Source: Rhizophagus irregularis
Taxonomy: Eukaryota > Glomeromycota > Glomeromycetes > Glomerales > Glomeraceae
Direction of reading: 5' to 3'
Length of the DNA: 64,000 nt
NCBI RefSeq assembly: GCF_026210795.1
Contig: NC_089447.1
Span: 3,040,501-3,104,500 of the forward strand
Part shown: one piece after another, positions 3,645-64,000 of the stretch
Position numbering within the stretch: position 1 is the stretch's first letter
How the letters are laid out: each line of letters opens with the position of its first letter
The notes under the pieces: model-generated
The model's input: the letters and a program-made list of their open reading frames with translations, nothing else
The model's database searches: none
Told to the model about the DNA's origin: nothing
Program-made: the position numbers and the translations under genes

Positions 3645-4117
3645 ATGAGCAAGTCTGTTAAAATACTAACCGCTGATTATCTGGATTGGCATGCCAAATT
3701 AACTGGGTTACCAAGTATTTGACAGATAAGATTCATTTCAAATTATACAAAAAATATAAAAAAGAAACTGGCAATGAGCCATGGCAATTTTCAGAAGTAC
3801 ATGGATCGGAAGTCATAAATTCAATGCCAGAAAACAAAGTATCATCTTTTTCCGAGCAATGTGAAGAAGAAGGGTCTATCACTTTTATTATCAAATCCGT
3901 CTTAAAGCACTTCCCATACTTGAAATTCCGAAATAGTTTTAGAGGGATTGATAATTATAATTTTGCATTACCTCAGCCATGGAACTCGCCATGCCCTATT
4001 TGCAATGGAAAATATGGGAATTATGGATTACAAGGTGAATGGTATAGGAATGGAACAGAATATTGTCTTACTTGCTTCACTTCAAGCAATAAAATCAAAT
4101 TCACGATCGTAGCATAG
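3645..4117 (+). pseudogene. Companion zinc-ribbon-like protein (copy B2), one frame break
   Basis: The ATG near 3645 opens MSKSVKILTADYLDWHAK and stops at a TGA at about 3719-3721. The overlapping frame then runs uninterrupted from LACQINWVTKYLTDKI to the stop at 4117 (about 140 codons). It contains KKYKKETGNEPWQFSEVHGS, VLKHFPYLKFRNSF, CPICNGKYGNYGLQGEWY and EYCLTCFTSSNK. The Cys pairs CPIC and CLTC frame a G-x-W-Y motif, which suggests a compact zinc ribbon. The same frame break exists in copy A2, so it predates the duplication or reflects an unrecognised gene structure. Function unknown. Confidence 0.5.
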
Positions 4118-52356: not shown

Positions 52357-52490
52357 ACAGTTCCAAAATTAAGCAACCCCTGAAAATAAGCAACCCTGGC
52401 CTGCATTAAGCCAATTTTGGCCAGAATTATGAGGACTTTGGCCAGAATTAAGTGCAAAAAATGGTTGCGTAATTTCAGAACCATACAGTA
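52357..52490. mobile_element. Small TA-flanked MITE
   Basis: The left arm CAGTTCCAAAATTAAGCAAC and right arm GTTGCGTAATTTCAGAACCA are near-complements about 80 bases apart, ending in ATACAGT on each side. The middle has two GGCCAGAATTA motifs. Confidence 0.6.
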
Positions 52491-53099
52491 ATTTACATTC
52501 AGGATGATTTTAATTATTTTCATCTAGATGATTTAACCTGATAATTTTATATAATTTTAATATAATTCAGGTGAAATCACCTAATTAATTTTATTGATAT
52601 AGTTCAAAAGGTAATTAAATTATTTATCGCCGTTTTCAGAAATATGTGTATTTGTTATTTTGTAAAAGTAGTTCACGTGCAAAATTCGAAACTCAAAATT
52701 TTGTATAACAATTAAAAATTATCCAATAATATTTATCCAGATTTCACATGCTAACTATTAATAATTAATTATCACACCTTCGCATACAAAAACAATTACA
52801 ATAAGTAATTGCGAAGTTGAAAAACCAGAAACCTTTAGTATAAATGTATAATATTAAATAGAAACCTGTTATATACATGTCAAAAGTGCCTTTACTGTAG
52901 TACTATTAAACCAATAATACAACAAACTTTTCTTATCTTTTACAAGTGAATCTAAAATCTGTAATATCAAATGTTTAATCAATAAATAATTTATCAATTA
53001 ATAAATTAAATATTAATAATAGTTAGGGCGAACTATATTACTTTTAATTATTAATATTTATCTTAATTAATAAAGTAATTTTACAATAATAATAAATCA
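52491..53099. other. AT-rich intergenic stretch
   Basis: No supported feature. Confidence 0.5.
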
Positions 53100-53290
53100 A
53101 AATAAATACATTTAAAACAACAAGATTCAGTTTTTCTTCTTCCTTGATGACCTTTAAATGGATGAATTACACACAATCCCAATGATCATAAATTCTTCTG
53201 ATCTCATATACAGTAGAAATGCCAATGTAAAGACTAAGAGCAGTTTCTATTGCTGAAAACCCATCAAGTTGATGGTAAATGATACATCAT
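53100..53290 (-). pseudogene. Helix-turn-helix remnant of a Tc1/mariner-like transposase
   Basis: The minus strand reads LDGFSAIETALSLYIGISTV and YEIRRIYDHWDCV, then in a shifted frame PFKGHQGRRK. This matches the layout of the N-terminal HTH and GRP-type linker of Tc1-like transposases, where a W-x-C-V followed by P-x-x-G-x-x-G-R-x-x-K is common. Nothing of the DDE catalytic domain remains nearby. Short and frameshifted. Confidence 0.4.
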
Positions 53291-54176
53291 CTTATATCAT
53301 TACTTAAAGTCTACTATGTTAATGCTAAATATTTTAAAAGATGATAAATAAGTAAAATTTAAAACGAAATTAAATCATAATAAGAACCAGAATAGTCTAT
53401 AATAGTTTTAAATTTTTAAAAAAATGTTTCAGAAAAAAAAATCATGCAATATACCTCAGTAAGCAAAAATTATAAGAATCTCAAGAAAGTACCGTGAGTT
53501 TTGTGATAAATAAAGTAACTATCTATATATCATAAAATTTATATTAAAATCTTGTATAAAGTAATATATTTATATGGAAAGGAAAAAATCACGTATTATT
53601 ATAACAACTTACTGTCTTGTAATATATTCCGTCGTAAAGTATAAAATCGCAAAAAAATCACAAAAATTCTCGTAAATATTAGCAAGTTTTGCAGCAAAAA
53701 AACTTTTTATATATTATAAAACTTATGTCAAAGCTTTATATAGAGTAGTATGTTCATATGGAAAAAAAAATTGTGGTTTGTCTTAGTAAAGTGTAAAAGT
53801 TTTATATTCAGAAAAATTATTTTTACAAAAATTTAAGTGATCATCGTGTGGCTTGAATTACACATATTTCTGAAAACGGCAATAAATTTAATAATTACGG
53901 CAGATGATAATACCTGATAAATATTACACAAATAATAAATGGTTGTGATACAAAATTACTATTGTTTATATAAATGCATTTAAGCCCATTTCTTTTAAAA
54001 AAATTCTGATACACATTAACGTGTTTTTTTTTAAAGAAAATTTTAACTTTTACTGTTTATAAGCACATATCTTATTCTGTTTTTCTAAAACATCATTTCC
54101 TAAAGTAAATTCATATCAATTATAATAATTTATATGAAATTACGAAACTTTAAAATTATTAATAAAACCACTTACA
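53291..54176. other. AT-rich intergenic stretch
   Basis: No supported feature; possible left flank of the MULE element, whose end I could not find. Confidence 0.45.
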
Positions 54177-55243
54177 ATGGAAAATATTTTAAACCCAAAT
54201 TTTTCCTATAGTTCTGATATGTTATTCAACTCTTATTATAATTTTTTATATAGTAGTTCAGATCTACTTAATGGTTATCAATACGAATCTTCTGATTGAC
54301 CGATATTTGAATTTTATGGTTTTCTGTATGATTTTTCTGATTTATTTCTTAAAGGTCATGATATACTTAATGAAACCTAAATAGAAAATGTAAGAAAAAT
54401 AGATGTTTTAGTAAATAAGGATATAAATAGGTATAATTTTCTGGAAGATGAAAGAATAAATAGCCGCTGGTATGATGTTTCAAATAATGAAAATAGAAAT
54501 TTTAATCATTAAGAATAGGAATATGATGATAGCGAGTATGAAGAAGAAGAGAATAGATTAAAATTAAATCAAGAGATGAAATTTGAAACATGAGAACTTG
54601 CTGAATCATATCTTAATGAATATGCAAAGTAACAGTGATTTTCTTTTTGTAAAAAAAAACATATATTAGATCCAACTGATAGTACAATAACAAGATGTAG
54701 AACATATAAATGTTCATATGCCCGAACTTATGAGATTCAAAAGGTTATTTTAGAAGAAAATAGAAGGGATAGGAATTCCAAAATGATTAAATATCTTTAG
54801 CATATTAATCTTTTTTTTAAAAAATCTGAAAATGATATTCGTATTAATAGTATAGTTGGGATACATATTTATAATACGAATCCTTGCATTACTAAGATAA
54901 CCCTAAAATTCTGAAAATTGACGGATAAAATACTTAAAAAAGTAAAGTTTTGAATAATTGAAGGAAAATTAAGCATATTAACTCAATATAACTTACTAGT
55001 AGTCTCATTTTCAAATAAAGTAATTAATAAAAAAGGTCTAAGTAACACTATTCAACAATTTAAAAAATAAGTGAAACCTATTAAAAATGATGCATATCAA
55101 ATACTTACTAAGCTATACTTAAAAAAAAGATGATTATCCAAAGATGGATTATAAAGCCACGCTTTGATCATAAAGAAAGAAGATTAAATTTATTATTTTG
55201 AATATCATCTGATCAAGTTAATGTATATGAAAGATACCATAAT

Positions 55244-56085
55244 TAAAGATGACTCTGAAATTGAAATATTTCAGATTTGCTGAAATTCCAAAACCGTAAC
55301 TGTAATTCCAACCAAATCCGAAATTCCGAAATCCAAAATTTCAGCTGAAATGCCAAAATTAAATATGTAAATTTGGCCAGAATTATGCACTTAATTCCGG
55401 CAGGAATTATAGAATTTTTTAAAATGGAAATTGATGTTACTCAAAATTCCATATTCATTCCTACCAAAATCGATTTTATGGAATGCTATCGCCAAATATG
55501 GGGGTCGTCTAAAGCCGTGTTCGATCACGTGACTCGATATTTTATAAATAAGCCATTTTTTTATGAACTAAGATTAATATAAGTATGAAAGTTATAAAAT
55601 AAGTGTATTTTAGCCTGCTTTACAAGTTTACTTGGTTAAAAAAAGCTGATTTTAAATACTGTTTTTGACTTTACATATGAATGAATAATCTTTACCGATC
55701 ATATCCAAAAATGGATAATGAAAATGAAAAAATTCAAATAAGTCAAAAATGGTGTTTAAAACCCCATGTTGCGCATTAAGTAAACTTGCACAGCAGGCTA
55801 AAATACACATATTATGTGTAACTTGAAAGTTTTATATATTGGCGAAAAGTTTTATTTGTAAAAAATAAATTTTTTACAAGTCACGTAATCGAACACGGCT
55901 TTAGATGACCCTCAAATATGGAAATGATTGATATATCTGTTTTGACCGGAATTACGATTTTCAGCTGGAATTATGAATTCGTCTGAAATTATGAATTAAT
56001 TTCAGAAAAATTTCAGATTTCAGATTCGGAATTTCAGATTTCAGATTTTTGCCAAATCAATTTCAGATTTTCAGGGCCATCCTTA
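55244..56085. mobile_element. 842-bp hAT-like non-autonomous element inside the MULE
   Basis: The ends TAAAGATGACTCTGAAA and the complement of TTTCAGGGCCATCCTTA are inverted over 17 bases with few mismatches. The flanks are ACCATAAT (55236-55243) and ACCATGAT (56086-56093), a 7-of-8 match. Subterminal zones are packed with TTTCAGATT and AATTCC motifs. The end TAAGGATGG is shared with the full hAT element at 56787, which may supply its transposase. It carries a nested 412-base element. Confidence 0.8.
55502..55913. mobile_element. 412-bp MITE nested in the 842-bp element
   Basis: The arms GTCGTCTAAAGCCGTGTTCG and the complement CGAACACGGCTTTAGATGAC enclose about 340 bases. The duplication AAATATGG (55494-55501 and 55914-55921) is perfect. 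Pairing runs 34 bases to CACGTGACT against AGTCACGTA. No coding potential. Confidence 0.85.
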
Positions 56086-57697
56086 ACCATGATATTGTGA
56101 TTGTCAATATGATGTTCAAAACTAATCAATTTGATATGATATTAATGCTAATCATTGTGCTTGATAATAATTTTAGAAATATAATAGTAACTGCAGCAAT
56201 TTTAGAAGATGAAACAGAAACAACTTTCACATGGATTTTACAAGAATTAAAAAATTCTTGTAATTTTACATCAAGTAATTTTACATCAACAGTCCTATAT
56301 TCTAATGCTGATCCAGCCTTAATATCAGCAATTATCCAGAAACACATTATTTCCATTGTATTTTCCATATAGATTTAAATCTAAAAAAGAATTTTAAAGG
56401 AAAATTACATGATCAATTTGAACTTTTTTGTGCTAGATTTTTAGAAATACGCAATTCTCTATGTCATAAAACATTTAAATAAAATGGAACACACTTATTA
56501 ATAAATTTTCAGCTTGTGAACAATATCTTACAAAAGCTTTATATTCTTGTAAAAGTAGTTAGGCTTGTTATGCTATCAATCAGAATTTTACAGCAGGAAT
56601 TCAAAGTACATAACAGGTAAAGTTTACTAATAAAATAATCAAAAATAGATTAAATAGTAGATCTTCATATTTGATTGATGTTGTTAAAGAAGTTCAAAAA
56701 ATATTTAATCAATAATTAAAAAAAGCAATATTAACTGAATGTAAAAATGAAATTCCTACTAGAGGAATACCTAAAGCTCTGCAACTTAAGGATGGTCATC
56801 GGTCCTACCGGTTCTACTCGGTCTTGGACCGGTCAGTCTCAGGACTTGTAGGACCGGACTGCGGTTTTGCATTTTTTTGTGGCGCAGTAGGACCAGTCCT
56901 GAAAACCAAAACATAGCGGACATGCTTTTATCACTTTGCCGATCATTTATTGATCATATAATATATCATGTCACATTAATTTTGAAGCTATGGTTAAAGC
57001 CATAAAATGCTTAGCCAAACTATACTAATGTCTTTTTAGTAGTATAATTTATGAAAAATAAAAAAAAATTATATTGTCAAAGTTAACCTTAAACTGAAAT
57101 TTTCAATAATTTCAATAATTTGATATTTGCCTTATTTGCCAATCATCTGCTAATTTGACTTTGAAGCTTCGGGCGAAGCCACAGATTTATGGGCAAAACT
57201 TGAAATTTTCAAAATATATTATTTAGGTATTCAAGAATTAATGGCCAAAATAATCATGTAGAATTTTAGGTAATCAAAAAGTTATCGTTGCGAAGCGTTT
57301 ATGAATATTATTAAAATACACATATAGACAAAATTTGTAAAACTTTATTAACTGTTTAAAAAATTTTTTTTGATAAATTTAATATGCAGTAAATTTAAAT
57401 GAATGTTAAATTGTCTGTAAAATTATTATTATGTAGAATTTTCAACCAAAGTAATTATAACAAAGTGATAAAATTGAATAAATGATCGACAAATGATCAA
57501 CAAAATTGTGATAAAGTAAAGATGTCCGCTATGCTGAGGACTGACCAGTCCTCGTATTGGTCTTCATATAATAAATGATTTTTATATTGAATAAACCTAT
57601 TAATATGATAAAGGTCTTTATAAAATAATATAAAGACCAGCCATTTTCAAACCAATAAATAATGACAATCACTCTTCCCACTTGTAGAAATTGTAAT

Positions 57698-58395
57698 CAA
57701 AACACTGAAACTCCGATACTCCAAAAAAAATGTTTAAGCGGAATATTTCATCATCCAGTGATCAGAAAAGGATGAAATCACCACCATTCGAATCGTCTCA
57801 GTGAGACGCGTCAAATGGTAACTAAATCATGTTTCTAGGATAGATAGATAGTCAGTAATTATTGAATTTATTATCAAATAGTTTTGATAACGTAAGATTT
57901 TTTTATTGATTATAAAATCATGATTTTAATACCATTTGACGTGCTGCAGCGAGATGATTCGAATAGTGGTAAATTAGCCCTTTATAATCACTGGATGGTG
58001 AGATATTGCGTTTTGAAGTATTTTTTCTCAAAGCTTTAAATTTTTGAAACTATGACTTCGGAAATTTCAAAAAAAAATTTTAAAACGTAATATCTCATTA
58101 TCCAGTGATTATAAAAGGATAAATTTACTACCATTTGAATTGTCTTACTGAGATGCATCAAATGGTATTAAAATTATGATTTTAGAATCGATAGAAAAAT
58201 AATTACATCAGCAAAACTATTTTATAACAAATTCAATAATTGTTGGTTATCTATTAATCCTGGAAATATGATGGGAATTATTCGACGCGTCTCACCGAGA
58301 CGATTCGAATGGTGGCGGTTTCATCCTTTCGATCACTAGATGACAAGATATTCTGCTTAAATGCTTTTTTTTAAGTTTGAAGTTTCAGTGTTTTG
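57698..58395. repeat. About 700-bp nested palindromic repeat
   Basis: The outer arms begin CAAAACACTGAAACT and are complementary over about 150 bases, including CCACCATTCGAATCGTCTC and GAGACGCGTC. A second inverted pair lies inside (about 57945-58020 against 58085-58160; CCAGTGATTATAAAAGGAT). The motif CATTYGAATCGTCTC with GTGAGAC also occurs near 41.3-41.6 kb and 63.93 kb. No target duplication was found, so whether it is a separate element is open. Confidence 0.65.
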
Positions 58396-58406
58396 ACAGG
58401 TAACTC

Positions 58407-59772
58407 TAGAGCTCCGCACGGGTCGGGTCGGGTCAGGTAATTTGTCTGACCTGAACTGAAAAATTTTTATCAGGTCGGGTCGGGTCGGGTAACCTGCTCT
58501 GACCCGACCTGACCCGTCTGACCTGAAAGTATTCAGGTCATTTTTCTATAAAATAATATGAAAAAACGCCGTTTTGGCGATTTTTTTCATAAAAGAAGTG
58601 GAAAAAAATGCCGTTTCGGCATTTTTCCATTAAATAATATGAAAAAACGCTGCTTTGGCGATTTTTTTCATAAAAGAAGTGAAAAAAAATGCCGTTTTGG
58701 CATTTTTCCATTAAATAATAGAAAACGCGCTTTGGCGATTTTTTTCATAAAAGAGGAAAAAAAATGCCGTTTTGGCATTTTTACATAAAATAATATAAAA
58801 AAGAAAAAACGCCGTTTTGGCGATTTTTTTCATAAAAGAAGTGATGCCAAAACGGCATTTTTTCATAAGATAAATGAAAAAATGCCGCTTTGGCGATGTT
58901 TTCATAAAAGAAGTGAAAAAAATGCTGTTTCGGCATTTTTCCATTAAATAATATGGAAAAATGCCGCTTTGGCGATTTTTTTCATAAAAAAAGTGGAAAA
59001 AATGCCATTTCGGCATTTTTCCATTAAATAATATGAAAAAACGCCGCTTTGGCAATTTTTTCATAAAAGAAGTGGGAAAAAATGCCGTTTCGGCATTTTT
59101 CCATTAAATAACATGAAAAAACGCCACTTTGGCGATTTTTTTCATAAAAGAAGTGGGAAAAATGCCGTTTCGGCATTTTCCCATTAAATAATATGAAAAA
59201 ATGCCGTTTTGGCGATTTTTTTCATAAAAGTAGGGGAAAAAATGCCGAAACGGCATTTTTCCATAAAATAATATGAAAAAAGCCGCTTTGGCGATTTTTT
59301 TCATAAAAGAAGTGGAAAAAATGCCAAAACGGCATTTTTCCATAAAATAATATTTAAAAAAGCCGCTTTGGCGATTTTTTTCATAAAAGAAGTGGAAAAA
59401 AATGCCAAAACGGCATTTTTCCATAAAATAATATGAAAAAATGCCATTTTGGCGATTTTTTTCATAAAAGAAGTGAAAAAAATGCCGAAACAGCATTTTT
59501 CCATAAAATAAAATGAAAACCGCCATTTCGGCGTATTTGTTTATAAAAAACAATGCCAAAACGGCGTTTTTTTCATAAGTAACATGAAAAAACGCTGTTT
59601 CAGAGTATAAACATTTTTTTTGAGCTAAAGTATTCGGGTTGACAGGTCAATCGGGTCGGGTCAAACCTGTAACCCGACCTGATACCGGGTCACGAATTTG
59701 ACAACCTGACCTGAATATTTCAGGTCAACCCGACGGGTCACCCGAATTGACCCTTACCCGTGCGGAGCTCTA
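58407..59772. mobile_element. Inner GGGTC-family element (1366 bp) inside the hAT
   Basis: The ends TAGAGCTCCGCACGGGT and the complement of ACCCGTGCGGAGCTCTA are perfect inverted partners. The target duplication GGTAACTC (58399-58406 and 59773-59780) is perfect. Subterminal zones are built of GGGTC/GGTCAGGT tandem units, and the centre is the hairpin array at 58549-59600. No transposase frame; the 8-base duplication suggests a hAT-type enzyme. Confidence 0.88.
58549..59600. repeat. Hairpin-rich tandem array, about 80-bp period
   Basis: About 13 units of roughly 80 bases. Each has a GCCGTTTTGGCG-type hairpin, then TTTTTTTCATAAAAGAAGTG, then TGCCGTTTCGGCA or TGCCAAAACGGCA, then TTTTTCCATTAAATAATATG. 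Alternating hairpins vary by compensating changes (GCCGTTTCGGC, GCCAAAACGGC, GCTGTTTCGGC). Long open frames on both strands here are repeat artefacts. Confidence 0.9.
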
Positions 59773-59780
59773 GGTAACTC

Positions 59781-60024
59781 TGCCTACTTACATGCTTATA
59801 TTCTTTCAAAAAGAATTTTCTAATGCTAATTTATTAATTTTTAAGATTATTTGTTCATTCTGAAATTTAGTAATTTATTCATTTTTTATAAATGTTAATT
59901 TATTTTTAATGTTAATAATAAATACATATATTTTTAAAGAGAATACATAAAAAGTTACAAAAAAAATAAAATAAAAGATTTTTTAATTATATGAAAAAAT
60001 AAAATATCAAAATTTTTTAATATT
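59781..60024. other. hAT interior, non-coding
   Basis: AT-rich 3' flank of the transposase gene. Confidence 0.5.
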
Positions 60025-61967
60025 TTATTCAATTTTTCCTTGTTCTAACCAAGATTTTAAGCATAAACATGCTCGTGTTGTATTAGCATCAATTCTGTTA
60101 CGTGTTTGACTAAATTGGTTTTCTGTAATTAAAAAAAACTGTTCACAAGGAACAGACGTTGGCATTATGGCTAAGTAGTCCTTTGCCATTTTTGATAATG
60201 TTGAGTATTCCATAGAATGGTTTTTCCACTATTCTAAAGGTACTACTTCATCACCCGGTGAGTTAGAAGTAAAATAAAGTTCCAATTCATTTAAAACAGG
60301 CTGCGGAGTTTGATTTAGTGCTATTAAATTGCGAAAAAAATTTCTTGTTTCAATTGCTGATAAATTCATTAAATGACGCTGAGAAGCCTGAATGGGTTGA
60401 GATGGTATATGAGTATTATTAGATTCTCTATAATTGGCTATTACTCTACAAATTGGTTCAAAAATATTATTTTGAAACATATCACCATATGCTAATTTTT
60501 TATAACGGGAATTAAAAAAGGCTGGAACATGTAATGTCTCACTTATTTCATCAAAATAATTTGTAAAAACACGGTTCATTTCATCTACTTGGTCTTGTAA
60601 AATAAAATTTTCACCTCGAGATTGATTTAAATGCATTCTAATACCTTTAAAAAGTAATTTAACTTCACCGATAGTTGGATAACTAGAAGCAGATATCACT
60701 CTTGTTACTGATGCAAAAGGAGCTAATAAGTCTGCTAAAATAGTAAGTATATTCCATTCTTCTTCATTTGGCTAATTATTTGATAATGATGTAAGATTTG
60801 ATACTAAATGAGCCAAAAGAGGTTTAATTTCTAATGCTCGATCTATTATATAAAATGTATAGTTCCATCTTGTAGTACAATCTGGAAGTGGTACTTTAAA
60901 TTTAATTTTTTCAACTTGAAAAAACTCCTTTAACTTATCTATTTGTTTAGGTGAATTTCTTACTGTACTAATAAATATACGCAACTTTTTGACACAATTA
61001 GGAACTATACTTGTATTAAGTGCTGCTTCAACAGCAAGGTTTGAAATATGTGCTGCACAGTGATAGTGGCAAAATTCTGATAAATTAAGATCTTCTTTAA
61101 TCAGTCGAGTCACAGCTAACATCTTTGCTTCATTGTTACTAGTAATTCCAATTAATCGATCTGCAATATTTAATTCTGAAACAATTTTGATAATAGAATC
61201 TTTAATTGCTAAAGCTGTGTGTGGTGAAGAAATATACAATACATCTAATACAAAGTGATCAAACTGCCAATCATCTTTTATAAAATGAATTGTTACTGCC
61301 AAAATACCTAATGAACTAATTGTTGTCCACATATCTATTGTTAACGAAATTTTGGAAGTTGAAAGTTGAAGGTAATTTTTTATTTGAATTTGTGCATTTT
61401 TAAACTTTTTCATTATCATATCTTTTATTGTGTGTCGAGATGGAATTTTGTATTTTGGTTGAATAGATGCTATAAATTTTTTAAAACTTTGATTTTCAAC
61501 AATGGTAAATAGTTGCTGGTCTGTGATAATTCAATTAACAAAAAGATTATGCTTTTCTTGTTGTATATCAACTGTCCAGGGTTTTGCATTAGATTCAACT
61601 TGACCTAAGTCTTTATATACATTAAAATGTTTAGCTTTTAAATGACGTTCAAGAGTTGTAGTAGAATTGTTTGCAGAGAAATGGCCTTCACAAATATGAC
61701 ATAAAATATAAGTTTCAGTTTGTTCATCATCTTTTTCAATTGTCTTTTTTTCAAAATATTTCCAAACACGAGCTTGTCTTAATTCTTTAGATCTAATACT
61801 AGAAGTTTCAGTTTCAGTTTCAGTAATTTTTCAGCCATTTCTGTTGTTATTTCACTATTTCTTTCTTGATATTCCTCATCCTTATAATCAATAAAAATTT
61901 GATCTTCTATAAAGGATTCATATGGAAAAGAGTTGTAATTATCCTCTTGTTCTTGCTCTTCAGCCAT
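60025..61967 (-). pseudogene. hAT transposase, nearly intact
   Basis: The reading frame starts at MAEEQEQEDNYNSFPYES (61967), shifts by one base near 61825, and then runs through to the stop at 60025. A BED-type zinc finger is visible (ARVWKYFEKK, YILCHICEGHFSANNST, LERHLKAKH). The catalytic region has SLTIDMWTTISSLGILAVTI, GITSNNEAKMLAV, CHYHCAAHISNLAVEAAL (CxxH) and TTRWNYTFYIIDRALEIKP. The C-terminal dimerisation domain has YPTIGEVK, DYLAIMPTSVPCEQFF and RNRIDANTTRACLCLKSWL. Lesions are the frameshift, one TGA (before IITDQQ, near 61531) and two TAG (near 60771 and 60226). Length is about 640 codons, close to normal. With only four breaks it is a recent pseudogene or a suppressible copy, and could have mobilised the TAAGGATGG elements nearby. 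Confidence 0.85.
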
Positions 61968-62504
61968 AATTCAAAAAAGGAAAAAAAAAATTTAATAAAA
62001 AAAAAAATTGCGATGGGAAAAATTTTTTAACTACTGTGCAAGTTTGAACACAGTGATGCATTTTTGCATAAATACAACTAGTTTTATCATGCTTAACTCA
62101 TATTTAGCTAAAAGGTTATGATTACCAAGTGTTTGATTAAATGAAAATGATTATATGATTGTCACTAATACAATAATAGTAAGTGCATGACGTATGTGAT
62201 GATCATAAATTCAGGTGATTTGTAAAAAAAAAATTTATATTAAAAATCATCACAATTAGTGTTCATTTATAAAACAAGGCTATTCCTAATAAAGTTAAGG
62301 AAGAAAATCTTTTTTTATTTGCAAAAAAAAGAAAAAAGACTGATTGGTCATAAAAAGACTGCGGTTCTTAAAAAGACTAATGGTCTTATTATATGTGATA
62401 CGAAGGCAGAAGGCTAACGATTAACATTTAAGACGGACCGGTCTGTCCTTTTATGGTGTAGGACCATAGGACCACGATCTTCTAGAACTGATGACCATCC
62501 TTAC
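61968..62504. other. hAT right flank, non-coding
   Basis: AT-rich with GGACCGGTC subterminal motifs near the right end; presumably contains the transposase promoter. Confidence 0.5.
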
Positions 62505-62696
62505 TGCAATTTGACCTGACAGATTAGGTGACCTAACGGGTTGATTTAAAATATTCAGATCAAGTCATCAAATTCATGACCTGATACAGGTCAGGTCAGT
62601 GCTAATCGGTACCTGACTTGACATGTTAACCTGACATATATTTGAGTCAAATAAATTAAAAAATACTGAAACTAATAATAATTCCAGTGTTTTTAC

Positions 62697-62993
62697 AGGA
62701 CCCCGGATATCTCCAAAACAGGTCATAAGTCACACTTTCGGCAGATTGGCCCATTTTTCAGGGGCTCAAAAAATCGTTTTTTGTAAATATCTCGGCATCC
62801 AGTGGTCCAATTTTGATGAACTTTTTTTTAAATTGTAGAGCTAAATGAGGGCTACAAAATAAAAAAAAGTTCATTAAAATTGAATTACTGGATGCTGAGA
62901 TATTTACAAAAAACGATTTTTTGAGTTTCAGCAAAAAGGGGTGTTTTTGGCCAAAAGTCCATTATGACTTTTATATTAGATATCCGGGGTCCT
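62697..62993 (+). mobile_element. Fold-back MITE, copy 3 of 3 (297 bp)
   Basis: Same orientation as copy 1. The target duplication GTTTTTAC (62689-62696 and 62994-63001) is perfect. It landed in the first unit of the hairpin array of the outer GGGTC-family element. The open frames at 62885-63160 derive from it and the array. Confidence 0.9.
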
Positions 62994-63001
62994 GTTTTTA
63001 C

Positions 63002-63470
63002 ATGTAAAATCAAAAAAAATGCCAAAACTAATAGTTTTGGCAGTTTTATATGTAAAATCAAAAAAAAAAATGCCAAAACTAACAATTCTGGCATTTTTAC
63101 ATGTACAATAAAAAAAAATGCTAAAACTATCAGTTTTGGCATTTTTACATATAAAATCAAAAAAATGCTAAAACTATCAGTTTTGGTGTTTTTATATATA
63201 AAATAAAAAAAAAAATGCCAGAACTAATAATTTTAGCATTTTTACATATAAAATTGAAAAAAAATGCTGAAACTAATGGTTTTAGTATTTTTATACTTTG
63301 GAGTAAAGCTAATTTCTTATTAAGGAGTCTTTCAGTATAAAATTAAAAAGAAAAATGCTGAAACTAATAATTCTGGTGTTTTTACATGTAAAATCAAAAA
63401 AAAAATATGCTAAAACTAACAGTTTCAGCATTTTTACATGTAAAATCAAAAAAAATATGCCAGAACAGGA
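63002..63470. repeat. Hairpin-rich tandem array, about 60-bp period
   Basis: About eight units of TTTTTACATGTAAAATC, an A run, then a hairpin such as TGCCAAAACTAATAGTTTTGGCA (stem ATGCCAAAACT and AGTTTTGGCA). Stem bases change in pairs between units (CCAAAAC, TAAAAC, TGAAAC). Analogous in plan, not in sequence, to the array at 58549-59600. Confidence 0.85.
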
Positions 63471-63484
63471 TCTCGAAGAATACA

Positions 63485-64000
63485 TATACAACTCAGATCT
63501 AAATCCAAAATTTTAATATAACTTTATATGCCTAATTTTATTAGAAGCTTTATACAAAATCATCACATAAATTCAAATTTTATTATAAATTATACAATTA
63601 TAAATTTGAGTTTATATAAAAAAAAAATTTTTAAAGAAAAATTTCAAATAAATTTTATTGAAAACATTATTAAAAATTATTTAAAAATTCTAACAAATAC
63701 TTAAAAAATTTCTTAAAAAAAAATTATTAAAAAATAACTTAAATAAAATTTTTAAACAAAATTGCATGTTAAAATTTTAAATACCTTATAGATATTGATG
63801 CCCAATATGTATAATATAGTAAGTTTTATGCAAAAATTTGAGTGTATACTACAAAATAAAAGAAAATACATTTTGTTATATATCTCACCACCCAGTGATC
63901 GTAAAAAGATGAAACACAGCTCGTTGGATTCGTCTTGACAAGACGAATCGAATGGTAGTAGTTTCGTGTTTCTAGGTGTGATAGATGTTGAGCTATACCA
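63485..64000. other. AT-rich stretch with a dispersed repeat fragment
   Basis: The last 120 bases (63885-63990) contain CACCCAGTGATCGTAAAAAG and GATTCGTCTTGACAAGACGAATC. These match the palindromic repeat at 57698-58395 and the interior of 41119-42208. Continues past the window end. Confidence 0.55.

What the first reader, a model, noticed from the sequence alone, without database searches (positions are those of the whole stretch)
54177..63484. Four-deep nest of DNA transposons with datable order
A MULE transposase gene is interrupted by a GGGTC-family element (56772-63476). That element is interrupted by a 5.7 kb hAT (56787-62504), which is itself interrupted by another GGGTC-family element (58407-59772). 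A separate branch has an 842-base element (55244) carrying a 412-base element (55502), and a fold-back MITE sits in the outer GGGTC element. Most junctions show 8-base duplications of 6 to 8 matches, and match quality generally improves from outer to inner layers, fitting the expected age order.
Basis: seen in the sequence. Interest (0 to 1): 0.75.

Follow-up and report, generated by a model that had tools for sequence, protein, structure and literature searches.

The report
Jumping genes nested four deep
A broken jumping gene in what looks like a symbiotic soil fungus holds a stack of other jumping genes inserted one into another; other copies in the same genome confirm most of the stack and its rough age order, but its outer right edge was misplaced, and the structure is of an ordinary, known kind.

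Summary
The nest is real and four layers deep: MULE, GGGTC element, hAT, GGGTC element. The outer right edge is wrong: joining 56771 to 63485 matched 0 of 19 MULE copies. Another element, X (63467-64594, 8/8 duplication), starts there; the GGGTC element resumes at 64603 and runs to 64976, where fold-back element Y interrupts it. Y breaks off at 65808; the right ends of Y, the GGGTC element and the MULE were not found up to 82,700. Divergence from sibling copies fits the age order (MULE 7.1%, hAT right part 2.0%, 626 element 1.0%, inner GGGTC flanks 0.3%), with some pairs unresolved and an uneven clock. Duplication quality does not show it: the 626 element has 5/9. Ordinary nested transposons, unusually well resolved.

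The parts
52489..52626 (+). Left end of the host MULE, separated from the rest by the TA-flanked element
   Evidence: 137 bases, 92% identical to the left end of MULE copy L003
52627..53882 (.). 1,256-base element flanked by TA, with inverted ends (TCGCCGTTTTCAGAAATATGTGTA / TTGCCGTTTTCAGAAATATGTGTAA), inserted in the MULE; probably Tc1/mariner-like
   Evidence: Empty site in 4 of 4 MULE copies tested; ends read; no ORF of 70 aa or more listed there
53883..55243 (+). Host MULE, middle part
   Evidence: Matches MULE copies L001-L004 over this stretch
55244..56085 (.). 842-base element in the MULE, duplication 7/8; about 420 bases without its 412-base insert
   Evidence: empty site in 10 of 10 MULE copies; siblings with both ends found 9 of 10, duplications 7/8 to 8/8
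55501..55912 (.). 412-base element inside the 842 element, duplication 8/8
   Evidence: empty site in 9 of 10 siblings of the 842 element; family of about 412 bases
56086..56771 (+). Host MULE, part with the MULE transposase domain; its right part (about 1.33 kb in L002 and L003) is missing from the locus
   Evidence: Pfam MULE PF10551, E 4.3e-10 for the 107-aa ORF 56049-56369
56772..64000 (+). Outer GGGTC element with its inserts; continues beyond the window to 64976; right end not found
   Evidence: Left end TAAAGCT at 56772 follows the MULE break; array resumes at 64603 after X and matches siblings to about 64976
56787..62503 (-). hAT transposon, about 3.7 kb without its two inserts; transposase remnants on the minus strand
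   Evidence: 7 full-length siblings at 93-96% over 59773-62503; empty site in 12 of 13 GGGTC siblings by script, 13 of 13 by eye; sibling sizes 3,697-3,742
56910..57535 (.).
   Evidence: Absent from 7 of 7 hAT siblings; family with 9-base duplications
58407..59772 (.). Inner GGGTC element inside the hAT, duplication 8/8
   Evidence: empty site in 7 of 7 hAT siblings
62697..62993 (.). 297-base fold-back MITE in the outer GGGTC element, duplication 8/8
   Evidence: empty site in 13 of 13 GGGTC siblings; 39 other scored places at 99-100% over the full length
63467..64000 (.). Element X, 63467-64594 (runs past the window end), inserted in the array of the outer GGGTC element, duplication GCCAGAAC 8/8
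   Evidence: siblings of 1,124-1,162 bases with 7/8 or 8/8 duplications, 8 of 8

Best explanation
A MULE transposon was broken up by successive cut-and-paste insertions of other DNA transposons, most of which left a target duplication that is still visible. It took a TA-flanked element, an 842-base element (which holds a 412-base element) and a GGGTC element. The GGGTC element took a hAT (which holds a 626-base element and a second GGGTC element), a recent MITE, element X and fold-back element Y. All decayed afterwards, largely by C-to-T and G-to-A change. A deletion or rearrangement with a breakpoint near 65808 then removed the right ends of Y, the outer GGGTC element and the MULE. Shown: the junctions, the empty sites, the failure to find the right ends up to 82,700, and the divergences. 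Inferred: that the inserts came singly at this site, and that one event removed the right side.
For: Ends and duplications. Empty sites: TA element 4 of 4, 842 10 of 10, 412 9 of 10, hAT 12 of 13, inner GGGTC 7 of 7, 626 7 of 7, MITE 13 of 13, X 13 of 13. Families have the same ends and mostly intact duplications at other places. X is followed by its duplication and the resumed GGGTC array. Y, the outer GGGTC element and the MULE all lack their right parts. Non-CpG divergence supports host older than guest for MULE/842, outer/hAT, hAT/inner GGGTC, hAT/626, outer/X and outer/MITE (bootstrap 0.97 or more).
Against: MULE/outer (0.362) and 842/412 (0.486) are unresolved and outer/Y is weak (0.915). 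The clock is uneven: the hAT left arm gives 0.055 against 0.020 on the right, and the outer array 0.020 against 0.080 in its unique part; uncorrected values put the inner GGGTC (0.057) above the hAT right part (0.028). The X join lies in a tandem array, so its empty-site test is weaker than the others. The outer GGGTC duplication cannot be checked because its right end was not found. Movement of ready-made composites is not excluded.
Confidence: 0.88

Rival explanations
1. One reading: one GGGTC element spans 56772-63476 and the MULE resumes at 63477.
For: 6/8 bases agree at the proposed flanks, and the left edge is right.
Against: 0 of 19 MULE copies join there. The sequence from 63467 belongs to another repeat, flanked by its own 8/8 duplication and followed by more of the GGGTC array.
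Confidence: 0.02
2. Some inner pairs arrived as ready-made composites, for example the 842 element already carrying the 412 element, so nesting gives the order within the composite but not the order of arrival at this locus.
For: 842 and 412 are equally diverged (0.039 and 0.040). L055, another 842 copy, carries a 412 relative at the same position.
Against: The L055 insert is only 73% identical to the window's 412 element while the 842 left parts agree at 85% and other 412 copies reach 94%, so it looks like a separate insertion. The inner GGGTC and the 626 element are absent from 7 of 7 hAT siblings, and the hAT from the 13 GGGTC siblings.
Confidence: 0.15
3. The right parts of Y, the GGGTC element and the MULE are not lost but lie further away, pushed off by more insertions, or the assembly is misjoined near 65808.
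For: Only 18.7 kb right of the window was read, and the region is full of repeats.
Against: A search with the first 578 bases of the MULE right part scored all 29 first-look candidates; its only place on this contig is near 912,552, over 2 Mb away. The downstream stretches hold no N.
Confidence: 0.2

Closest known systems
Nested insertions in coding MULEs of maize and rice (PMC3903597; passages seen)
   Same: MULEs interrupted by other transposons, with insert and one duplication removed before alignment.
   Different: There a survey of plant genomes, with maize inserts mostly LTR retrotransposons; here one apparently fungal locus with only DNA transposons recognised.
Transposon landscape of Rhizophagus irregularis (PMC11075540, abstract, outline and passages; PMC8647823, start of abstract and passages)
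   Same: About 50% repeats; hAT, MULE, Tc1-Mariner and MITEs reported; CG methylation of transposons, which fits C-to-T decay.
   Different: 'Nested' occurs 0 times in the main text of PMC11075540 and once, about genes, in PMC8647823. No tool names the organism of this window; the identity is inferred.
hAT superfamily, non-autonomous members
   Same: GGGTC and Y elements have 8-base duplications with the hAT-like nTnnnnAn pattern (pattern recalled, papers holding it seen only as a listing).
   Different: No transposase was found for the GGGTC or Y elements; the GGGTC elements carry long tandem arrays between their ends.

Membership tests
MULE (host) | MULE transposase domain | tested here: met
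   PF10551, E 4.3e-10, above the curated cut-off, in the window; E 5.2e-20 in copy L003
MULE (host) | Inverted ends with 8-9 base duplications | tested here: inconclusive
   Ends of copies L002 and L003 look alike and inverted, but the duplication was not measured; the window copy lacks its right end
hAT (56787-62503) | 8-base duplication and short inverted ends | tested here: met
   7/8 in the window, 14 of 14 end bases paired; 8/8 in 6 of 6 siblings with both ends found, of 7
hAT (56787-62503) | BED finger and hAT transposase domain | tested here: inconclusive
   BED finger E 8e-08 in sibling L022; hAT-like RNase-H E 1.4e-4 in L022 and 0.0029 in the window, both below the curated cut-off; the 215-aa window ORF has no family
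hAT, non-autonomous (GGGTC and Y elements) | 8-base duplication with T at position 2 and A at position 7 | tested here: met
   27 of 46 positions in 23 duplications, P 0.00015 by shuffling within duplications; three outer and one Y duplication with poor matches were left out
hAT, non-autonomous (842 element) | T at position 2 and A at position 7 of the duplication | tested here: inconclusive
   8 of 20 positions, P 0.33; for the hAT itself 6 of 14, P 0.07
Tc1/mariner (52627-53882) | TA duplication and inverted ends | tested here: met
   TA on both sides and inverted ends; empty site in 4 of 4 copies
Tc1/mariner (52627-53882) | DDE transposase | tested here: inconclusive
   No ORF of 70 aa or more listed in this stretch; no family search was run on it

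The most novel reading that the evidence does not exclude
The 297-base MITE is in, or has only just ended, a genome-wide burst: the 39 other places scored (40 scored of 877 first-look candidates; the rest unscored) are 99-100% identical over the full length. It could therefore differ between strains and mark present-day transposition in a fungus group long considered asexual.
Probability: 0.35. Interest if true: 0.45.

Novelty: new member of a known kind. Interest (0 to 1): 0.25.

Why it matters
It gives one well-checked layering of DNA transposon families in an AT-rich, repeat-heavy genome. It also shows that the match quality of target duplications is a poor clock, and that a nest edge read by eye can turn out to be the start of yet another insertion.

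Tried and rejected
The fold-back at 57698-58395 was first suspected to be another insert; it is part of the hAT in 7 of 7 siblings. Divergence over whole elements, with CpG and arrays included, put the inner GGGTC at 0.057, above the hAT right part at 0.028; non-CpG sites and array-free flanks (left flank covered in 9 of 10 copies) gave 0.003 and 0.020. Both results are told. The search for the MULE right part downstream gave only short matches, mostly AT-rich, among them 61 bases of L009 at 68,121-68,177. The ends of six outer GGGTC siblings matched only 64917-64986 and stretches of 19-45 bases elsewhere. The shift control of the empty-site test showed that the aligner bridges gaps: shifted by 25 bases, 9 of 10 still spanned (8 with 25 gaps, 1 with 2); shifted by 60, 1 of 10. 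Gap counts at the true joins were 0 to 2. The 626 join was placed two bases off, which explains its 2 gaps. The hAT join had only 15 bases of left flank.

Full report
Setting. The window lies at C19:3040501-3104500 of a 146.7 Mb genome in 32 contigs. No tool names the organism; genome size, AT richness and transposon content suggest Rhizophagus irregularis, which is an inference. Downstream sequence was read to window coordinate 82,700.

Junctions. A script placed the ends and duplications: 842 element 55244-56085, 7/8; 412 element 55501-55912, 8/8; hAT 56787-62503, 7/8; inner GGGTC 58407-59772, 8/8; MITE 62697-62993, 8/8.

Empty sites. Sibling copies were fetched and each join was tested: TA-flanked element 4 of 4; 842 in MULE 10 of 10; 412 in 842 9 of 10 (L055 missing); hAT in outer GGGTC 12 of 13 (L037 missing by the script, though 13 of 13 read through by eye); inner GGGTC in hAT 7 of 7; 626 element in hAT 7 of 7 with 2 gaps, because the join was placed two bases off; MITE 13 of 13; X 13 of 13, a weaker test because it joins within a tandem array. 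Controls: a join shifted by 25 bases was still bridged in 9 of 10 (8 of them with 25 gaps), and by 60 bases in 1 of 10.

The outer edge. MULE copies continue past 56771 with sequence that L002 and L003 share for about 1.33 kb. It was not found in the window or downstream to 82,700, and the only place on this contig that matches its first 578 bases is near 912,552. Eight of eight fetched copies of the repeat on the right begin to match at 63462-63467 and share nothing with each other upstream. This element, X, ends at 64594 and has GCCAGAAC on both sides; the GGGTC array resumes at 64603 and runs to 64976, where fold-back element Y starts. Y has an insert of about 245 bases after 65523, resumes at 65769 and breaks off at 65808, while six of six fetched siblings are about 1.2 kb long. 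One deletion or rearrangement near 65808 would explain why the right ends of Y, the outer GGGTC element and the MULE are all missing; this is inferred.

Missed layers. The left arm of the hAT holds a 626-base element, 56910-57535, absent from 7 of 7 siblings, from a family with 9-base duplications. The left end of the MULE lies near 52489 and is cut off from the rest by a 1,256-base TA-flanked element, 52627-53882. Without the 626 and inner GGGTC inserts and their duplications the hAT is about 3.7 kb, like its siblings (3,697-3,742 bases, 6 of 7 with both ends found).

Age order. Divergence of the window copy from the majority of its siblings, outside CpG: MULE 0.071; outer GGGTC unique part 0.080 (12 of 150 sites); 842 0.039; 412 0.040; X 0.038; Y 0.048; hAT right part 0.020; 626 element 0.010; inner GGGTC flanks 0.003 (1 of 290 sites); MITE 0.0035. 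Bootstrap share with host more diverged than guest: MULE over 842 0.993; outer over hAT 0.999; hAT over inner GGGTC 0.999; hAT over 626 0.971; outer over X 0.972; outer over Y 0.915; outer over MITE 1.000; MULE over outer 0.362; 842 over 412 0.486. No pair is clearly reversed. The MITE is as young as the innermost GGGTC element (0.350 for inner over MITE) although it sits one layer further out. Against a simple clock: the hAT left arm gives 0.055, the outer array 0.020, and uncorrected values put the inner GGGTC at 0.057 against 0.028 for the hAT right part. Duplication quality does not follow depth: the 626 element has 5/9.

What the parts are. The host carries a MULE domain; hAT sibling L022 has a BED finger and, below the curated cut-off, a hAT-like RNase-H domain. 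Duplications of GGGTC and Y elements follow the hAT-like pattern nTnnnnAn in 27 of 46 positions, P 0.00015 (four poorly matching duplications left out; the pattern is recalled, and papers holding it were seen only as a listing). They are therefore probably non-autonomous hAT elements. The same test was not significant for the hAT itself (6 of 14, P 0.07) or the 842 element (8 of 20, P 0.33).

Literature. [quoted passage not shown] Two papers on R. irregularis transposons were seen in part. The paper searches listed no title about this locus; this is a limited search.

Verdict. The nest is real and mostly as described, wrong at its outer right edge, larger than described, and ordinary in kind.

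Noticed in passing
L055 (G000:C24:85600-86710): Another 842 copy carries a relative of the 412 element (73% identical) at the same position as in the window, which hints at a preferred target.
   Followed up: partly
57534-58406: The left arm of the hAT, with its fold-back, is more diverged from its siblings than the right part (0.055 against 0.020 outside CpG).
   Followed up: partly
62184-62503: The last 310-350 bases of the hAT match alone at 20 listed places at 83-88%, as expected of internally deleted derivatives.
   Followed up: no
62697-62993 and 63467-64594: The MITE and element X share the terminal bases AGGACCCCG and 8-base duplications, so they may use the same transposase.
   Followed up: no
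L005 (G000:C13:4664800-4671042): This MULE copy is interrupted at the equivalent of 56734 by sequence that includes hAT end pieces and a relative of the MITE.
   Followed up: no
L021, window coordinates 65524-65768: An insert of about 245 bases in element Y, outside the window, matches other loci at 79-96%; its exact duplication was not settled.
   Followed up: partly
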